Of a stretch of 63,505 nt of DNA, positions 25,931 through 52,183 are shown one piece after another. The notes under the pieces are model-generated. The model saw only the letters and a list, made by a program, of their open reading frames with translations, did no database searches and was not told where the DNA came from. Origin of the DNA: an uncultured Gemmiger sp. (GTDB lineage: Bacteria; Bacillota; Clostridia; Oscillospirales; Ruminococcaceae); the NCBI GenBank assembly GCA_944388145.1, contig CALXHQ010000012.1:1-63505 (forward strand), written 5' to 3'. The translations under genes and the position numbers were made by a program. Each line of letters starts with the position of its first letter. The first letter of the stretch is position 1.

Positions 25931-26020
25931 GGCGGTCACCTCGAAAGAGTAAAAGAGATTAACAAATGGCGGGGGCTTTTGTACTTTTGGATTTTGGGTT
26001 GAGCAGCGGGGTGGAGGGCT

Positions 26021-26162
26021 GTTTTTTCTCAGCCCGGCGGGGCTGTGGGTTTCTTTTTTACCGGCAGTCTGCCGGGAGCATTCTTCTTTCGTCACCGAAA
26101 GAGGAACGCCTTCCGCCGTACAACGGTAAAAGAGAAACCACCAACCCCGCCAGGCCGAAAAC
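26021..26162. repeat. MH repeat, minimal copy (argB-argD gap)
   Basis: Shortest copy: a reverse terminal module (26021-26079), one hairpin (26080-26107, loop TCAC, i.e. GTGA on the other strand) and a forward terminal module (26108-26162). It looks like a full copy from which everything between the two outer hairpins has been lost. Fills most of the gap between argB and argD. No coding capacity I believe in. Confidence 0.85.
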
Positions 26163-26166
26163 AGTT

Positions 26167-27021
26167 TTACCGGCTGCCCCGGCGGTAGAACAGCGTGCCC
26201 GACCCGCGGTCGGAGAACATCTCCAGCAACACCGAGTGGGGCACCCGCCCGTCAATGATGACCGCCTCGTGGACGCCCTCATAGATGGCATCGGCCATGC
26301 CGTCGATCTTGGGGATCATGCCGCCGGCAATCACGCCCGCCGCCTTGTAGCCCGCAATCTCGGACAGTTCCACCTCGGGGATCAGGGTGCTCTCGTCATC
26401 CTTATTATACAACAGGCCGACAATATCGGTCATGGAAACCAGCTTTTCGGCGTGCAGCGCGATGGCAATGGCCGCGGCGGCGGTATCGGCGTTGATGTTG
26501 TAGGGGATACCGCTGTCGTCCATGCCCACCGTGGCGATCACCGGGATGAACCCATCGGACAGCAGGTGCTCGATCAGGGTGGTGTCCACCCGTTCCACGT
26601 TGCCCACATAGCCCAGGTCGGCGTCCGTCTTGCGGGTGCAGGTGATCATGTGGCCGTCCATGCCGCACAGGCCCACGCCGCGGCCCTTCAGCAGCGCCAC
26701 CAGGTCCTTGTTCACCTGTCCGGCCAGCACCTGCTGTACAATGGCCATAGTCTCCCGGTCGGTGTAGCGCAGGCCGTTCACGAATTTGGACTCCTTGCCC
26801 ACCTTGTCCAGCATCTGGTTGATGGCCGGGCCGCCGCCGTGAACCAGCACCACCCGCACGCCCAGCAGCGTCAGGGTGACCAGGTCGTTCATAACAGCCA
26901 GTTTCAGCGCATCGTTGACCATGGCGTTGCCGCCGTACTTGATGACCAGCGTCTTGCCGTGGTATTTCTGGATATAGGGCGTTGCCTCGGAAAACAGCAG
27001 CGCCATCTCTTCATTTTTCAT
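26167..27021 (-). CDS. argB: acetylglutamate kinase
   Basis: Phosphorylates N-acetylglutamate, second step of arginine synthesis and usual point of arginine feedback. 284 residues, ATG 27021 behind GGGAGG. Motifs 'VIKYGGNAMVND' and 'LVHGGGPAINQML' are typical of the amino-acid kinase fold, with 'MTDIVGLLYNKDD' and 'IAGGMIPKIDGM' at the C-terminal half. Starts 20 bases after argJ, same strand. Confidence 0.97.
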   Translation of the reverse strand: MKNEEMALLFSEATPYIQKYHGKTLVIKYGGNAMVNDALKLAVMNDLVTLTLLGVRVVLVHGGGPAINQMLDKVGKESKFVNGLRYTDRETMAIVQQVLAGQVNKDLVALLKGRGVGLCGMDGHMITCTRKTDADLGYVGNVERVDTTLIEHLLSDGFIPVIATVGMDDSGIPYNINADTAAAAIAIALHAEKLVSMTDIVGLLYNKDDESTLIPEVELSEIAGYKAAGVIAGGMIPKIDGMADAIYEGVHEAVIIDGRVPHSVLLEMFSDRGSGTLFYRRGSR

Positions 27022-28279: not shown

Positions 28280-28336
28280 AATATTCTCTTCTCTCTATGA
28301 TTTCGTTTTGTTGGGTATCGGGTTTGCTGCGGGGCC

Positions 28337-29072
28337 GTTTTTTCTCAGCCCGGCGGGGCTGCGGGTTTCGATTTTAGCGGCAGTCTGCCGGGGGCATTCT
28401 TCTTTCATCACTGAAAGAAGAATCAAGAAAGGTGCCACCGGTTTCGACGCGGTGGACGCACGACGAGGGGCTTGCCGGCACCGAGCGATCATATCGCGAC
28501 CTGCGCCGCAGGCGCAGCGCCGGCAACGGGCGGAGCGATGAGCGAGCCCGTTCCTCTGTCCTTCATTGCCGAAAAGGCAATCACGGATGGAGGCTGAGCC
28601 GCCCCGCAACAGCGTGGTGCCCGGCCCTACCTTGCGGGCCGGGGGATCGTTTTACTCCCCCTGTTCCTGCGGGAAGGCTTGTTGCGGTATTTGTAATAAC
28701 TGCCCGCCGTTTGGTCTCTCCTGCGGTTGCCGGCAGGAACGCTCTGCACGGGCAGCCTGAAACCTGCCGGCAAGGCAACGGGGGTGACCCAACGTACCCT
28801 CGGCCCGCAGGGTAGGGCCGAGCACCTGGCGGCTGTGGGGCGCTACAACGTATCCTCAGACTGGGGTCCAGGGGATAAGTTCCCCTGGTCGGGCGCCCAC
28901 CGCCTCGAAACCGGTGGCACCTTTCTCGGTTCCTCTTTCGGTGACGAAAGAGGAACGCCTTCCACCGTGCAACGGCAAAAGAGAAACCGCCAACCCCGCT
29001 GAGCAAAAAAACGCTTACCGCCGTACAACGGTAAAAGCGAAACCACCAGCCCCGCCAGGCCGAGAAAAGAAC
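28337..29072. repeat. MH repeat, full-length copy (argJ-argC gap)
   Basis: Left arm (reverse): terminal module 28337-28395, hairpin H4 28396-28423 (ATTCTTCTTTCA and its complement, loop TCAC), H3 28435-28455 (CCACCG/CGGTGG), a GC-rich stretch with TTGCC/GGCAA and CGGGC/GCCCG stems, and H1 28620-28643 (CCCGGCCC/GGGCCGGG). A middle of about 155 bases follows. Right arm (forward): H1 28799-28822 (CTCGGCCC/GGGCCGAG), H2 28868-28888 (CCAGGGG/CCCCTGG), H3 28897-28917, H4 28929-28956 (GTTCCTCTTTCG, loop GTGA), and two terminal modules 28957-29072. It lies opposite in orientation to the copy at 48704-49396, whose middle it matches when reversed. Confidence 0.88.
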
Positions 29073-31529: not shown

Positions 31530-31711
31530 AATGGGTACCTCCTGTTTGTTGTGGATGGATGCCAGCCCGCCCGGCTGCGGGGGCGCGGCGGACAGGCCGG
31601 GAAAATGACAAGCCGCCCAGGGCGGGCCCTGCGGCGCGGCCCTGGGACGGCAGACAGATTTTCGAAAATTGGGGATTGGGGGGGTGAACAGCGGGGGCGA
31701 TAAAACCTTCC
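31530..31711. other. gap upstream of argH before the repeat
   Basis: GC-rich spacer with an argH Shine-Dalgarno (GGAGGTACC) near its right edge at 31540. I see no promoter-like pair or terminator I would defend here. Confidence 0.4.
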
Positions 31712-31925
31712 CTCGGCCCGCAAGGTAGGGCCGAGCACCGCAATTTGGCGGGATGACACAACGTATCCTCAGGCTGGGGTCCAGGGGATGAGTTCCCCTG
31801 GTCGGGCGTCCACCGCCTCGAAACCGGTGGCACCTTTCTCGGTTCCTCTTTCGGTGACGAAAGAGGAACGCCTACCGCAGGATGCCGGTAAAAGCGAAAT
31901 CACCCGCCCCGCCAAGTGGCAGGGG
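31712..31925 (+). repeat. MH repeat, half copy (argG-argH gap)
   Basis: Forward arm only: H1 31712-31735, H2 31781-31801 (CCAGGGG/CCCCTGG), H3 31810-31830 (CCACCG/CGGTGG), H4 31842-31869 (GTTCCTCTTTCG, loop GTGA, perfect 12-bp stem) and one terminal module 31870-31925. The reverse arm and the middle are missing. Confidence 0.88.
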
Positions 31926-47288: not shown

Positions 47289-48677
47289 ATGCAGCTCCGC
47301 AGTACCATCTGTGCGCTGGCGACGCCCCCCGGGGAGGGGGGGATCGCCGTGGTGCGCCTGTCCGGCCCGGACACCTACCCCATTGCCGCCAAGGTCTTTG
47401 TACCCATCCATAAACAGAAGTCGGTGTTGGAGGCCAAAGGCTACACCGCGCTGTTCGGCCACTATATTCTGGCCGGGCAGGAGATGGACGAGACGGTGGC
47501 GCTGTTCTACCGCGCCCCCCACAGTTACACCGGCGAGGATGTGATCGAACTTTCGGTTCACGGTGGCAGCGCCATGTCGGACGGGCTGCAACAGGCGTTG
47601 ATCGCCGCCGGCGCGGTGCCCGCCGCCCCCGGCGAGTTCACCCGCCGCGCACTGGAGAACGGCCGCATGAGCCTGACCCAGGCCGAGGCGGTGATGGAGG
47701 TCATCTCGGCAAACGGGCGGCAGGGTGCAGCGCTGGCCAAGTCCGCGCTGGACGGCCGCCTGGCCCGGGAGGCGGGGGAGATCCGCCGGGCGCTGCAATC
47801 GCTGGCCGCCCACCTGACTGCCTGGATCGATTACCCCGAGGAGGATGTGTACGAGCTTGCCCCCGCTGAGCTGAAGACCACCCTTCAACAGCAAAAGGCA
47901 AAGCTGGATGGCTGGGTGGACAGCTACAACGCGGGGGCGGTGCTGCGCCACGGGGTGGATTGTGTGCTGCTGGGGCGGCCCAACGTGGGCAAAAGCACAC
48001 TCTTAAACCTGCTGGCCGGGTTTGACCGGGCCATCGTCACGCCGGTGGCGGGTACCACCCGGGATGTGGTGGAGCAGACAGTGCAGCTGGGGGATATCCG
48101 GCTGAACCTGTTTGATACCGCAGGCGTCCGGGCCGAGGAGGAGGCCGACGCCATCGAGGCCGAGGGCATCCGCCGCAGCTGGAAAAAATTGGAGGAAGCC
48201 GGGCTGGTACTGGCAGTGTTTGACGCCGGCGCCCCGGTGACGGAGGCGGACATTGAGATTGCCCGCCGCTGCCAGGGCCGCCCGGCGCTGGCCATCTTCA
48301 ACAAGCAGGACCTGGCCGCGGATACCCATCAGTTTGACGAGGGGCTGCTGACCCCCTATTTCCGGCAGGTGATCCGGCTGTGTGCCCGGGACGCCGCCAG
48401 CCTGAAACCGCTGTCCGACGCGGTGGCCGGGCTGTTGGGCACTGCCGGCCTGGACCCGAACGCCGCAGCGCTGGTCAGCCGGCGGCAGCTGGCGGCAGCC
48501 ACCGCCGCCCGGGACGCGGTGGGGGAGGCCATCGCTGCGGTGGACGCGGGGTTCGGCCTGGACGCGGCGGGCGTCTGCATCGAGGACGCGCTGCGCGCCC
48601 TGGCCGACCTGACCGGAGAGGACGCCACCGAGGCTGTCATCGACGAGGTGTTCTCCACTTTTTGCGTGGGGAAATAA
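47289..48677 (+). CDS. mnmE: tRNA uridine-5-carboxymethylaminomethyl modification GTPase
   Basis: 462 residues. With MnmG it modifies uridine 34 of several tRNAs. N-terminal folate-binding domain ('ALATPPGEGGIAVVRLSG'), helical domain, and inserted G domain with 'GRPNVGKSTLLN', 'VAGTTRDV', 'LFDTAGVR' and 'NKQD'. The C-terminal catalytic motif C-x-G-K is 'FCVGK'. mnmG follows, but 775 bases later because a full-length MH repeat lies between them. Confidence 0.97.
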   Translation: MQLRSTICALATPPGEGGIAVVRLSGPDTYPIAAKVFVPIHKQKSVLEAKGYTALFGHYILAGQEMDETVALFYRAPHSYTGEDVIELSVHGGSAMSDGLQQALIAAGAVPAAPGEFTRRALENGRMSLTQAEAVMEVISANGRQGAALAKSALDGRLAREAGEIRRALQSLAAHLTAWIDYPEEDVYELAPAELKTTLQQQKAKLDGWVDSYNAGAVLRHGVDCVLLGRPNVGKSTLLNLLAGFDRAIVTPVAGTTRDVVEQTVQLGDIRLNLFDTAGVRAEEEADAIEAEGIRRSWKKLEEAGLVLAVFDAGAPVTEADIEIARRCQGRPALAIFNKQDLAADTHQFDEGLLTPYFRQVIRLCARDAASLKPLSDAVAGLLGTAGLDPNAAALVSRRQLAAATAARDAVGEAIAAVDAGFGLDAAGVCIEDALRALADLTGEDATEAVIDEVFSTFCVGK

Positions 48678-48703: not shown

Positions 48704-49396
48704 GGTTTTCTCAGCCCGGCGGGGTTGGTGGTTTCTCGTTTGCCGTTCTGCGGCGAGGTGTGTTACTCTTTATCTTGGTGGGATTGGTGGCTTCTCTTTT
48801 GCCGTTGCACTACGGAAGGCGTTCCTCTTTCGACACCGAAAGAGGAACCGAGAAAGGTGCCACCGTTCCGATGCGGTGGACGCCGGCTTGAGGGCCTTGC
48901 CCTCAAGACTCCCGCCCAAGATTGACGGCAGCCACCCCGCCACCGGGATGCGCTCGGCCCTACCCTGCGGGCCGAGGAAACGTTGGATGTCCCCCAATGC
49001 CTTGCCGGCAGGTTTCCTGCGTCTGGTTTGTGCTGTTCGCCCGCCGAAAAAAAACAAATCAAAGGCAGCTGTTGCAAATACCGCAACAAACCTTCCGGCA
49101 GGAACGGGGGAGTAAAACGACCCCCCGGCCCGCAAGGTAGGGCCGGGCACCACCTGTTGGCGGGGCGGCTGCCGTTTATCGCAGGCAGGATTGCAAAGGG
49201 CAAGGCCCTTTGCTCGTGCGTCCACCGCCTCGAAACCGGTGGCACCTTTCTTGATTCTTCTTTCAGTGATGAAAGAAGAATGCCCCCGGCAGACTGCCGG
49301 TAAAAAAGAAACCCACAGCCTTACCGGGCTGAGAAAAAATGCCCGCGGCACCCCGCCGCTAAAATCGAAGCCCGCAGCCCCGCCGGGCTGAGCCCC
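48704..49396. repeat. MH repeat, full-length copy (mnmE-mnmG gap)
   Basis: Left arm (reverse): two terminal modules 48704-48820, H4 48821-48848 (GTTCCTCTTTCG stem, loop ACAC), H3 48860-48879, H2 48887-48907 (CTTGAGGGC/GCCCTCAAG), H1 48953-48976 (CTCGGCCC/GGGCCGAG). Middle about 147 bases. Right arm (forward): H1 49124-49147 (CCCGGCCC/GGGCCGGG), H2 49193-49213 (GCAAAGGGC/GCCCTTTGC), H3 49222-49242, H4 49254-49281 (ATTCTTCTTTCA, loop GTGA) and two terminal modules 49282-49396. Within one copy the two arms use different sequences for the same helices. Confidence 0.88.
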
Positions 49397-49452: not shown

Positions 49453-51324
49453 TTGATCGACCATCTTGGCAGTTACGACGTGATCGTGATCGGCGCCGGC
49501 CACGCCGGCATCGAGGCCGCCCACGCGGCGGCGGTGCTGGGCGCCAAAACCGCTGTATTCACCCTCACGCTGGACTTTATCGGCAATATGCCCTGCAACC
49601 CCTCCATCGGCGGCACCGCCAAGGGCCATCTGGTGCGGGAGATCGACGCGCTGGGCGGACTGATGGGCATTGCCGCCGACGCCACCTTCCTGCAAAGCCG
49701 GATGCTTAACCGGGGCAAAGGCCCCGCGGTGCACAGCCTGCGGGTGCAGACCGACCGCAAGCGCTACCATATCTATATGAAGCACGCCCTGGAGCTGACC
49801 CCGAACCTGGACATCCACCAGGCCGAGGTTGTAGGCCTGAACGTGCAGGACGGCCATGTGGCGGGCGTTTACACCAACCTGAACGGCTACTACGCCTGCA
49901 AGTGTGTGGTCATTGCCACCGGCACCACGCTGGGCGGCCGCATCTTTGTGGGCGAGGCCAGCTACGCCGGCGGCCCGGACGGCCAGCACGCCGCCACCCG
50001 CCTGACCGCGGACCTGGCGGCGAAGGGCTTTCCGCTGCGCCGGTTCAAGACCGGCACCCCCGCCCGTGTCCACCGCCGCAGCATCGACTTTTCCAAGCTG
50101 GAACGCCAGCCCGGCGACCCGGACGAGAGTTTGCAGCCTTTCAGCTTTCTGACCCGCCAGCCGATGCATAATAAGGTGGACTGCTACATCACCTACACCA
50201 ATCCCGAAACCCACAAGGTCATCCTGGATAACCTGGACCGGTCGCCGCTCTACGGCGGCGAGATTCAGGGCGTCGGCCCCCGCTACTGCCCCTCCATTGA
50301 GGATAAGGTGGTGCGCTTCAAGGACAAGGCGCGCCACCCGGTGTTCGTCGAGCCCTGCGGCGAGGATACCGAGGAGATGTATCTGCAGGGGCTTTCCTCC
50401 AGCCTGCCGGAGGCGGTGCAGAACGCCATGTACCACACCATCGCCGGGTTTGAACATCTGGAAATCATGCGTCCGGCCTACGCCATTGAGTACGACTGCG
50501 TGGACCCCACCAGCCTGTACCCCACGCTGGAAAGCAAGGTGGTGGCTGGCGTTTACGGAGCCGGGCAGTTCAACGGCACCTCCGGCTATGAGGAGGCCGC
50601 CGCCCAGGGCCTGCTGGCGGGCCTGAACGCCGCCCGCCATGCGCTGGGCAAATCCGAGCTGGTGCTGGCGCGGCACACCAGCTACCTGGGCACGCTGGTG
50701 GACGACCTGGTGACTAAAGGTGTCATGGATCCCTACCGGATGATGACCAGCCGCAGCGAGTACCGGCTGAGCCTGCGCCAGGACAACGCCGATGAGCGGC
50801 TGACCCCAATCGGGCGGGAGTACGGCCTGGTGGACGACGCCCGCTGGGCGCAGTTCTGCCGCGACCGGGACATCAAAACCGTCGAGCTGGCCCGGCTGGC
50901 CCGCACCAAAGTCAAGCTGGCCGACCTGCGGGCCGCAGCGGGGGAGGGGGTCAACATCGGCGAGAGCGGCGGCACCGCCGAGGAACTGCTCCGCCGTCCC
51001 GGCATCCGGTATGAGATGATTGCCAAGGTGATCGGCTGGGGTGAGGGCGTCACCCCCACCATGGCGCTGCGCATCGAGACCGAGATCCGCTACGCGGGCT
51101 ACATTGCCCGGGAGCAGCGGGTCATCCGGGAGATCCAGCGCCACGAGAATGTGGCCATCCCCGCCGATTTTGACTATGCGCCGCTTTCCACTCTGACGCT
51201 GGAAGCCCGGGAAAAGCTGGCGAAGATCCGTCCCCGGACGCTGGCCCAGGCCGGACGCATCCCCGGCGTGTCGCCCAGTGATATCTCGCAGCTGTCGCTG
51301 GCGCTGCTGAAAGTGAAAAAGTAA
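49453..51324 (+). CDS. mnmG: tRNA uridine-5-carboxymethylaminomethyl modification enzyme MnmG
   Basis: 623 residues from TTG 49453 (GAAAGGACG upstream). FAD-binding 'VIVIGAGHAGIEAAHAAA', 'PCNPSIGGTAKGHLVREIDA', and 'GQFNGTSGYEEAAAQG' are MnmG signatures; C-terminal helical domain binds MnmE and tRNA. Works as an MnmE-MnmG complex using methylene-tetrahydrofolate and NADH. Flanked on both sides by MH repeats. Confidence 0.97.
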   Translation: MIDHLGSYDVIVIGAGHAGIEAAHAAAVLGAKTAVFTLTLDFIGNMPCNPSIGGTAKGHLVREIDALGGLMGIAADATFLQSRMLNRGKGPAVHSLRVQTDRKRYHIYMKHALELTPNLDIHQAEVVGLNVQDGHVAGVYTNLNGYYACKCVVIATGTTLGGRIFVGEASYAGGPDGQHAATRLTADLAAKGFPLRRFKTGTPARVHRRSIDFSKLERQPGDPDESLQPFSFLTRQPMHNKVDCYITYTNPETHKVILDNLDRSPLYGGEIQGVGPRYCPSIEDKVVRFKDKARHPVFVEPCGEDTEEMYLQGLSSSLPEAVQNAMYHTIAGFEHLEIMRPAYAIEYDCVDPTSLYPTLESKVVAGVYGAGQFNGTSGYEEAAAQGLLAGLNAARHALGKSELVLARHTSYLGTLVDDLVTKGVMDPYRMMTSRSEYRLSLRQDNADERLTPIGREYGLVDDARWAQFCRDRDIKTVELARLARTKVKLADLRAAAGEGVNIGESGGTAEELLRRPGIRYEMIAKVIGWGEGVTPTMALRIETEIRYAGYIAREQRVIREIQRHENVAIPADFDYAPLSTLTLEAREKLAKIRPRTLAQAGRIPGVSPSDISQLSLALLKVKK

Positions 51325-51338
51325 GCGTTTCTGGGATG

Positions 51339-52100
51339 GTTCCTCTTTCGGTGACGAAAGAGGAACGCCCCCGCCGCCGAACGGAAAAGTCGAAACCACC
51401 CACCCTGCCGGGCCGATGCAAGCATCGGCCCCCACGCAAAGGTACTGTCTGACGGCAGAAACGATCTGTACGGGTAACCACACACCTGCCGGCAGCAGCC
51501 GGGGATAACCAGCGTTTCCTCGGCCCGCAGGGTAGGGCCGAGCACCTGCCATTGGCGGGGCGCTACAACGTATCCTCAGGCTGGGGACCAGGGGATAAGT
51601 TCCCCTGGTCGGGCGTCCACCGCCTCGAAACCGGTGGCACCTTTCTCGGTTCCTCTTTCGGTGACGAAAGAGGAACGCCCCCGCCGCCGAGCGGAAAAAT
51701 CGAAACCACCCACCCTGCCGGGCCGATGCAAGCATCGGCCCCCACGCAAAGGTACTGTCTGACGGCAGAAACGATCTGTACGGGTAACCACACACCTGCC
51801 GGCAGCAGCCGGGGATAACCAGCGTTTCCTCGGCCCGCAGGGTAGGGCCGAGCACCTGCCATTGGCGGGGCGCTACAACGTATCCTCAGGCTGGGGACCA
51901 GGGGATAAGTTCCCCTGGTCGGGCGTCCACCGCCTCGAAACCGGTGGCACCTTTCTCGGTTCCTCTTTCGGTGACGAAAGAGGAACGCCCCCCGCCGCCG
52001 AACGGAAAAATTGAAACCACTCACCCTGCCGGGCCGAGATAAAACACCCCGGCAGCCCTGCCGGTAAAGTAGAAACCGCCCACCCCGCCAAGCCGAAAAA
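51339..52100 (+). repeat. MH repeat, tandemly duplicated half copies (mnmG-rsmG gap)
   Basis: A 310-bp unit (51341-51650) is repeated at 51651-51960 with only about two differences by eye; a third partial unit begins at 51961. Each unit has H4 (51339-51366, 51649-51676, 51959-51986), a terminal module, a small GCCGATGC/GCATCGGC hairpin, half of the middle, H1 (51519-51542, 51829-51852), H2 (GACCAGGGG/CCCCTGGTC) and H3. A last terminal module ends near 52100. All forward orientation. Confidence 0.9.
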
Positions 52101-52183
52101 AAACAGCAACCGGCAATCCCGCCATCATATTCCAAAAATAGCAGCCAAACCACCCCCAAACTCTCTTCCTTCGGAGGTATCCC

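What the first reader, a model, noticed from the sequence alone, without database searches (positions are those of the whole stretch)
48704..49396. Second full-length MH repeat with strong pairing-preserving substitutions between its arms
Same order of hairpins as in the arg copy, but the helices use different bases. H2 is CTTGAGGGC/GCCCTCAAG in one arm and GCAAAGGGC/GCCCTTTGC in the other, versus GACCAGGGG/CCCCTGGTC in the 51-kb copies. H4 is GTTCCTCTTTCG or ATTCTTCTTTCA, each with its exact complement. H1 is CTCGGCCC/GGGCCGAG or CCCGGCCC/GGGCCGGG. Changing both sides of a stem together is direct evidence for selection on the fold.
Basis: seen in the sequence. Interest (0 to 1): 0.9.

Follow-up and report, generated by a model that had tools for sequence, protein, structure and literature searches.

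The report
Mobile intergenic repeat with pseudoknotted arms
A non-coding DNA repeat that comes and goes between genes of Gemmiger gut bacteria keeps a knotted fold in each of its two arms even as the letters change, so evolution seems to be preserving a shape in what looks like a mobile element of unknown mechanism.

Summary
Window 48704-49396 is a 0.7-kb inverted repeat between mnmE and mnmG; stems H1, H2 and H4 read as described. It belongs to an interspersed family in Gemmiger: 464 units in 29 of 35 genus genomes (sum mine).

Stem double changes alone do not prove selection: template switching and conversion between copies can produce them. Better evidence, not in the finding, is two pseudoknots. 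The H4 loop pairs with bases just 5' of hairpin H3 (40 of 47 distinct loop/partner combinations have 3 or more pairs, permutations at most 26; combinations absent from the discovery set: 25 of 31, permutations at most 20). The H3 loop pairs with bases 3' of H3. Hairpin-copying artefacts would not explain these.

The two arms are diverged, not a recent inversion. Insertion sites are filled or empty between species. G-T pairs do not exceed A-C pairs, which does not favour a one-strand RNA.

Best reading: a non-autonomous, MITE- or REPIN-like mobile element whose arms are kept as a folded recognition structure, more likely DNA. No Rfam match at gathering. The enzyme is unknown; Y1 transposase, reverse transcriptase and TnpB do not track copy number.

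The parts
48704..49396 (.). whole element: inverted-repeat intergenic element between mnmE and mnmG
48718..48771 (+). outer repeat unit, left, copy 1 (59-bp spacing)
   Evidence: family D2
48777..48830 (+). outer repeat unit, left, copy 2
   Evidence: family D2
48818..48909 (+). left-arm core unit (H4-PK1-H3-PK2-H2), model R1 score 101 bits
48821..48848 (+). hairpin H4, loop ACAC at 48833-48836
48857..48859 (+). PK1 partner GTG, pairs with H4 loop CAC 48834-48836
48860..48879 (+). hairpin H3, loop TTCCGATG
48884..48886 (+). PK2 partner CGG, pairs with H3 loop CCG 48868-48870
48887..48907 (+). hairpin H2
48953..48976 (+). hairpin H1
49124..49147 (-). hairpin H1 of right arm
49191..49284 (-). 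right-arm core unit, model R1 score 90.8 bits
49193..49213 (-). hairpin H2 of right arm
49214..49216 (-). PK2 partner CGA of right arm
49222..49242 (-). hairpin H3 of right arm
49243..49246 (-). PK1 partner GGTG of right arm
49254..49281 (-). hairpin H4 of right arm, loop TCAC
49276..49333 (.). outer repeat unit, right, copy 1
   Evidence: family D1
49335..49392 (.). outer repeat unit, right, copy 2
   Evidence: family D1
25999..26174 (.). related short copy (outer units and H4) between argD and argB
28325..29068 (.). related two-armed copy between argJ and argC
31692..31916 (.). related single-arm copy between argH and argG
51337..52101 (.). related copy with a tandem-duplicated arm between mnmG and rsmG

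Best explanation
It is a non-coding, non-autonomous mobile repeat, working like a MITE or REPIN. It lies between genes and has two inward-facing arms. Each arm holds a roughly 90-nt module of three hairpins (H4, H3, H2) tied by two pseudoknots (H4 loop to the bases 5' of H3; H3 loop to the bases 3' of H3). The module is kept because its folded single strand, more likely DNA than RNA, is what an unidentified enzyme acting in trans recognises when the element is copied or moved. Shown here: the family, the covariation, the diverged arms, and filled and empty orthologous sites. Inferred: that the fold is read by a mobility enzyme, and that it is read in DNA.
For: PK1: 40 of 47 distinct H4-loop/partner combinations have 3 or more contiguous Watson-Crick pairs; the best of 10,000 permutations reached 26 (134 of 150 rows parsed, 16 dropped). 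PK1 was first seen by eye in units that also enter this set; of the 31 combinations that do not occur in the 63-unit alignment, 25 pair, permutations at most 20. In 63 units PK1 cells are 96.8% and PK2 cells 99.5% paired. Mobility: four window sites are filled here and empty in relatives: mnmG-rsmG in 5 of 5, 26.0 kb in 3 of 4, 28.3-29.1 kb in 4 of 4, 31.7 kb in 5 of 5; near 30.1 kb three relatives are filled while this genome and G034 are empty. Whole-element copying: two arms of one element average 64-91% identity by genome, the best arm of another element 88-99%. DNA level: over all pairs of 63 units, G-T 14, A-C 23, other mismatches 37, Watson-Crick 1833; in the six pseudoknot pairs G-T 0, A-C 2, other 5, Watson-Crick 371. 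RVT_1 was not found in 8 of the 9 genomes with 18 or more units.
Against: No mobilising enzyme was found. No target-site duplication was shown: intergenic flanks are too diverged, and 8 copies aligned with flanks in one relative showed none by eye. An A-rich linker (AAA invariant in 63 units) beside a T-A-rich upper stem resembles RNA H-type pseudoknots (recalled, not tested). Some units break PK1, e.g. loop GCCGCC with partner CCGCC, 6 units. PK2 varies almost only at one pair, and its states scatter over the tree (12 changes against a minimum of 13 in shuffled labels), so its number of independent changes is unknown. Conversion between copies inflates all such counts. It was not tested whether the empty sites are losses. 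The empty G006 mnmG-rsmG spacer holds a short hairpin that resembles H4.
Confidence: 0.5

Rival explanations
1. The arms act as RNA: a structured element in the mRNA between operon genes that protects, processes, attenuates or ends the transcript; because the arms face inward, either reading direction meets a sense arm first. Mobility is incidental.
For: All five window sites lie between co-directional genes of biosynthesis or tRNA/rRNA-modification clusters, so the element is probably transcribed. Terminator-like sites are in excess: 8 found against a mean of 1.9 (sd 1.7) in shuffles, 3 of them on the strand of mnmE-mnmG. Pseudoknots with an invariant AAA linker fit RNA (triplex idea recalled).
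Against: No excess of G-U over A-C (14 to 23 over all pairs of 63 units; 23 to 29 in the 120 of 142 distinct A3 rows with at least 85% Watson-Crick cells). No Rfam match at gathering. The same gene junctions lack it in related species.
Confidence: 0.27
2. Mutational upkeep only: template switching and conversion between copies keep each hairpin perfect, with no selection on the fold.
For: H4 stems stay Watson-Crick (538 pairs, 0 G-T, 2 mismatches in the upper 10 bp of 54 distinct hairpins; the parser requires 7 contiguous pairs, so this is biased). Whole-stem replacement between orthologs. Template switching is documented (PMC8794818, passages).
Against: Does not explain co-change of a loop and a partner outside the hairpin.
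Confidence: 0.13
3. IS200/IS605 or REP element mobilised by a Y1 transposase in the same genome.
For: Palindromic hairpin repeats in inverted pairs resemble BIMEs and REPINs; 6 of the 9 genomes with 18 or more units do have a Y1_Tnp match.
Against: Y1_Tnp (PF01797) was not found in this genome, in G019 (49 units) or in G031 (24 units), and has 8 matches in G026, which has no unit. GTAG occurs in 0 of 63 core units.
Confidence: 0.05

Closest known systems
REPINs / BIMEs (REP elements with TnpA_REP)
   Same: Intergenic palindromic repeats in inverted pairs; in the known case the fold is recognised in single-stranded DNA (PMC8266576, passages; PMC3116915, search listing only)
   Different: Much longer (about 0.5-0.8 kb), several hairpins and two pseudoknots per arm, no GTAG in the core units, Y1 transposase does not track copy number
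MITEs (bacterial)
   Same: Short, non-coding, inverted halves, multicopy, filled and empty sites (PMC10969869, search listing only)
   Different: No autonomous partner or target duplication found; arms carry a conserved pseudoknotted fold
Palindromic candidate structured RNAs of human microbiomes
   Same: Structures on both strands of intergenic DNA in gut bacteria (PMC8040213, passages)
   Different: The four examples in the passages seen are 80-132 bp and mainly from Bacteroidetes; Gemmiger, Faecalibacterium, Subdoligranulum and pseudoknot have 0 occurrences in the main text; its supplements were not read, so overlap with its list is not excluded

Membership tests
REP / REPIN (TnpA_REP type) | GTAG tetranucleotide at the foot of the hairpin | tested here: not met
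   GTAG in 0 of 63 core units; the outer repeat units were not scanned for it
REP / REPIN (TnpA_REP type) | Y1 (HUH) transposase gene in the host | tested here: not met
   PF01797: 0 matches in this genome, G019 and G031; present in 6 of 9 genomes with 18 or more units
MITE | Short non-coding element with inverted halves | tested here: met
MITE | Presence/absence at orthologous sites | tested here: met
MITE | Target-site duplication | tested here: inconclusive
   Flanks of empty and filled sites too diverged; none seen by eye around 8 aligned copies
MITE | Autonomous partner sharing the ends | tested here: inconclusive
   Only Y1_Tnp, RVT_1 and TnpB families searched; whole genomes were not available as files
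Rfam RNA families (4227) | Score at or above gathering cut-off | tested here: not met
   0 matches in the window; only hit over the element at E up to 5 was Archaea_SRP, 20.8 bits against a cut-off of 96.5
IS200/IS605 with TnpB | TnpB tracks the element | tested here: not met
   PF07282 over cut-off in 2 of 35 genomes, G003 (5 units) and G009 (4 units); none over cut-off in the 9 genomes with 18 or more units

The most novel reading that the evidence does not exclude
A class of mobile bacterial repeats whose recognition signal is a double pseudoknot of single-stranded DNA, moved by an enzyme family not yet linked to such substrates, and spread as a diverged superfamily through the order.
Probability: 0.25. 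Interest if true: 0.85.

Novelty: new variant of a known kind. Interest (0 to 1): 0.6.

Why it matters
Interspersed palindromic repeats are common in bacteria, but these arms keep a two-pseudoknot fold through hundreds of copies in one genus, and the first pseudoknot also in diverged units of other genera. That makes a direct test possible: in which molecule, DNA or RNA, is the fold kept, and what protein reads it? If DNA, it would widen the known signals of mobile DNA beyond simple hairpins. It also warns that hairpin covariation alone in such repeats is not proof of RNA function.

Tried and rejected
Rfam at gathering and by E-value over the element: nothing credible. Phage and plasmid collections with window 48780-49320: no match; IMG/VR exact-pattern scan: 0. 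Y1 transposase, reverse transcriptase and TnpB as drivers: no agreement with copy number. Recent inversion of one arm: rejected. Terminator role: not rejected; 8 terminator-like sites against a mean of 1.9, though the strongest, 8 G-C pairs, is on the strand opposite to mnmE-mnmG. Literature searches for a description of this repeat showed none in their listings, which were capped; supplements and most subscription journals were not available. Order-level matches (9 genomes besides this one) are mostly near 30 bits; I treat them as leads, and two (L171, L172) do not keep PK1. In a first count of G-T against A-C I left out the three outermost H4 pairs (3 G-T, 16 A-C, 9 other, 1714 Watson-Crick); these held 11 G-T and 7 A-C, so I recounted over all pairs and give that count.

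Full report
WHAT IS THERE. The element at 48704-49396 lies between mnmE (47289-48677) and mnmG (49453-51324), both on the plus strand. The window has no tRNA and no Rfam match at gathering. The element's two halves are inverted copies, 74-76% complementary in the two longest blocks. The minimum-energy RNA fold pairs the two halves with each other (z -14.5), but what relatives share is the set of local hairpins: in G010 the two arm units are on average only 64% alike.

FAMILY. In this genome (G000, 2.73 Mb, 29 contigs) a DNA search gives 46 matches. A model (R1) built from 63 units with nested pairs only finds 18 units here and 464 in 29 of 35 genus genomes (sum mine); 6 genomes have none. The genus is Gemmiger: of 42 stretches with an exact core pattern in named genomes, 28 are Gemmiger records, some with contig lengths equal to those of G019; the other 14, from other groups, were not inspected and may be chance. 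With R1, 7 of 148 genomes match at family level, 10 of 394 at order level and 1 of 398 at phylum level, the window's own genome counted each time; these large searches use stricter filters. Most full elements have two units facing inward (by eye).

FOLD. Aligned units show hairpins H4, H3 and H2. Two further interactions cross them. PK1: the H4 loop pairs with the bases just 5' of H3 (CAC/GTG, CGC/GCG, AAC/GTT, GAC/GTC, GCC/GGC). PK2: the H3 loop pairs with the bases 3' of H3 (TCG/CGA, CCG/CGG and once CCC/GGG). I found both by eye, in units that also make up A1. PK pairs were not in model R1, so the model did not force them. On A1, 96.9% of 1907 cells pair, against 82.6% in shuffles and at most 54.2% in slid controls; the count of further pair types is lower than in shuffles. 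On the wider set A3 (150 rows, 142 distinct, many also in A1), 40 of 47 distinct loop/partner combinations have 3 or more pairs; swapped partners do so in 30% of cases, and no permutation of 10,000 passed 26 (16 of 150 rows dropped by the parser). Of 31 combinations not in A1, 25 pair, permutations at most 20. The 7 failures are loop GCCGCC with CCGCC (6 units), which could be a flipped loop, and six combinations from weak hits. On a tree built without the pseudoknot columns PK1 changed 11 times (5' side 11, 3' side 10; shuffled minimum 31) and PK2 12 times (12 and 11; shuffled minimum 13). The near-equal counts of the two sides fit joint change, but the PK2 states are scattered almost as in shuffled labels, so conversion between copies or a poor tree may inflate that number.

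WHY STEM CHANGES ARE NOT ENOUGH. Template switching can create and maintain perfect stems and invert loops (PMC8794818, passages seen). The same element in G010 and G021 at the orthologous mnmE-mnmG site has H4 replaced as a block, with neighbouring sequence nearly unchanged. So hairpin covariation is compatible with mutation and conversion. The pseudoknots are not easily so.

DNA OR RNA. If one strand acted as RNA, G-U should outnumber A-C at paired columns. Over all 31 pairs of 63 units there are 14 G-T and 23 A-C cells, and in the six pseudoknot pairs 0 and 2; 11 of the 14 G-T lie in the three outermost H4 pairs, and 6 of the A-C come from one column pair, 84-94. In the 120 of 142 distinct A3 rows with at least 85% Watson-Crick cells there are 23 and 29. 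This favours DNA, or both strands, or mutational upkeep; it does not settle the matter. The invariant AAA linker and the excess of terminator-like sites are the hints of RNA.

MOBILITY. mnmG-rsmG: about 860 bp here against about 20-105 bp in five relatives; the G006 spacer holds a short H4-like hairpin but no unit is visible. Site 26.0 kb (argD-argB): 227-250 bp here against 27-29 bp in three relatives; in the fourth, G016, the contigs end in units on both sides. Site 28.3-29.1 kb (argJ-argC): 842-864 bp here against 11-35 bp in four. Site 31.7 kb (argH-argG): 444-489 bp here against 61-132 bp in five, with no unit visible in the printed spacers. Near 30.1 kb (argC-argH) the reverse holds: G021, G010 and G016 have 460-861 bp with units, this genome 63-82 bp, and G034 aligns without a break. 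At mnmE-mnmG, elements are seen in G000, G016, G010 and G021 and not in G006. All five window sites lie between co-directional genes. In 20 hand-picked elements of six genomes, two arms of one element are on average less alike (64-91% by genome) than best-matching arms of different elements (88-99%), so arms diverged before whole elements were copied; G031 (91 against 95%) shows it least.

DRIVER. Y1_Tnp was not found in G000, G019 and G031 and has 8 matches in G026, which has no unit; 6 of the 9 genomes with 18 or more units have some Y1_Tnp match. RVT_1 was not found in 8 of those 9, which argues against copying through RNA, with the caution that several are incomplete. TnpB passes its cut-off in 2 of 35. 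The element was not found in the phage, plasmid or viral collections as searched.

VERDICT. A real family with a conserved fold, most likely a mobile element of MITE or REPIN style with an unusual pseudoknotted arm. Membership in REP is not met; membership in MITE is partly met and partly untestable here.

Noticed in passing
L255:18340-18790 (G006) and window 51400-51900: A second hairpin repeat (GATGCAAGCAxCG...ACGCAAAGG) is shared between the G006 mnmE-mnmG spacer and the 51-kb copies; the G006 spacer also has TGTAGGGCGGGCGATTTCGCCCGCC, which looks like a GTAG-type REP (recalled).
   Followed up: no
L262:17440-18760, L261:4540-6160, L259/L260: Several relatives carry a small extra gene between mnmE and mnmG that is not seen in the window or in G006.
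   Followed up: partly
window 51337-52101: The mnmG-rsmG copy has one arm duplicated head to tail.
   Followed up: partly
G016 and G023 contigs: Many contigs begin or end in a unit, so copy numbers are probably underestimated by assembly breaks.
   Followed up: no
L051:3627-4328, L182, L052:5029-5198: Arrays of truncated H4-PK1 units lie outside the main arms in G016.
   Followed up: no
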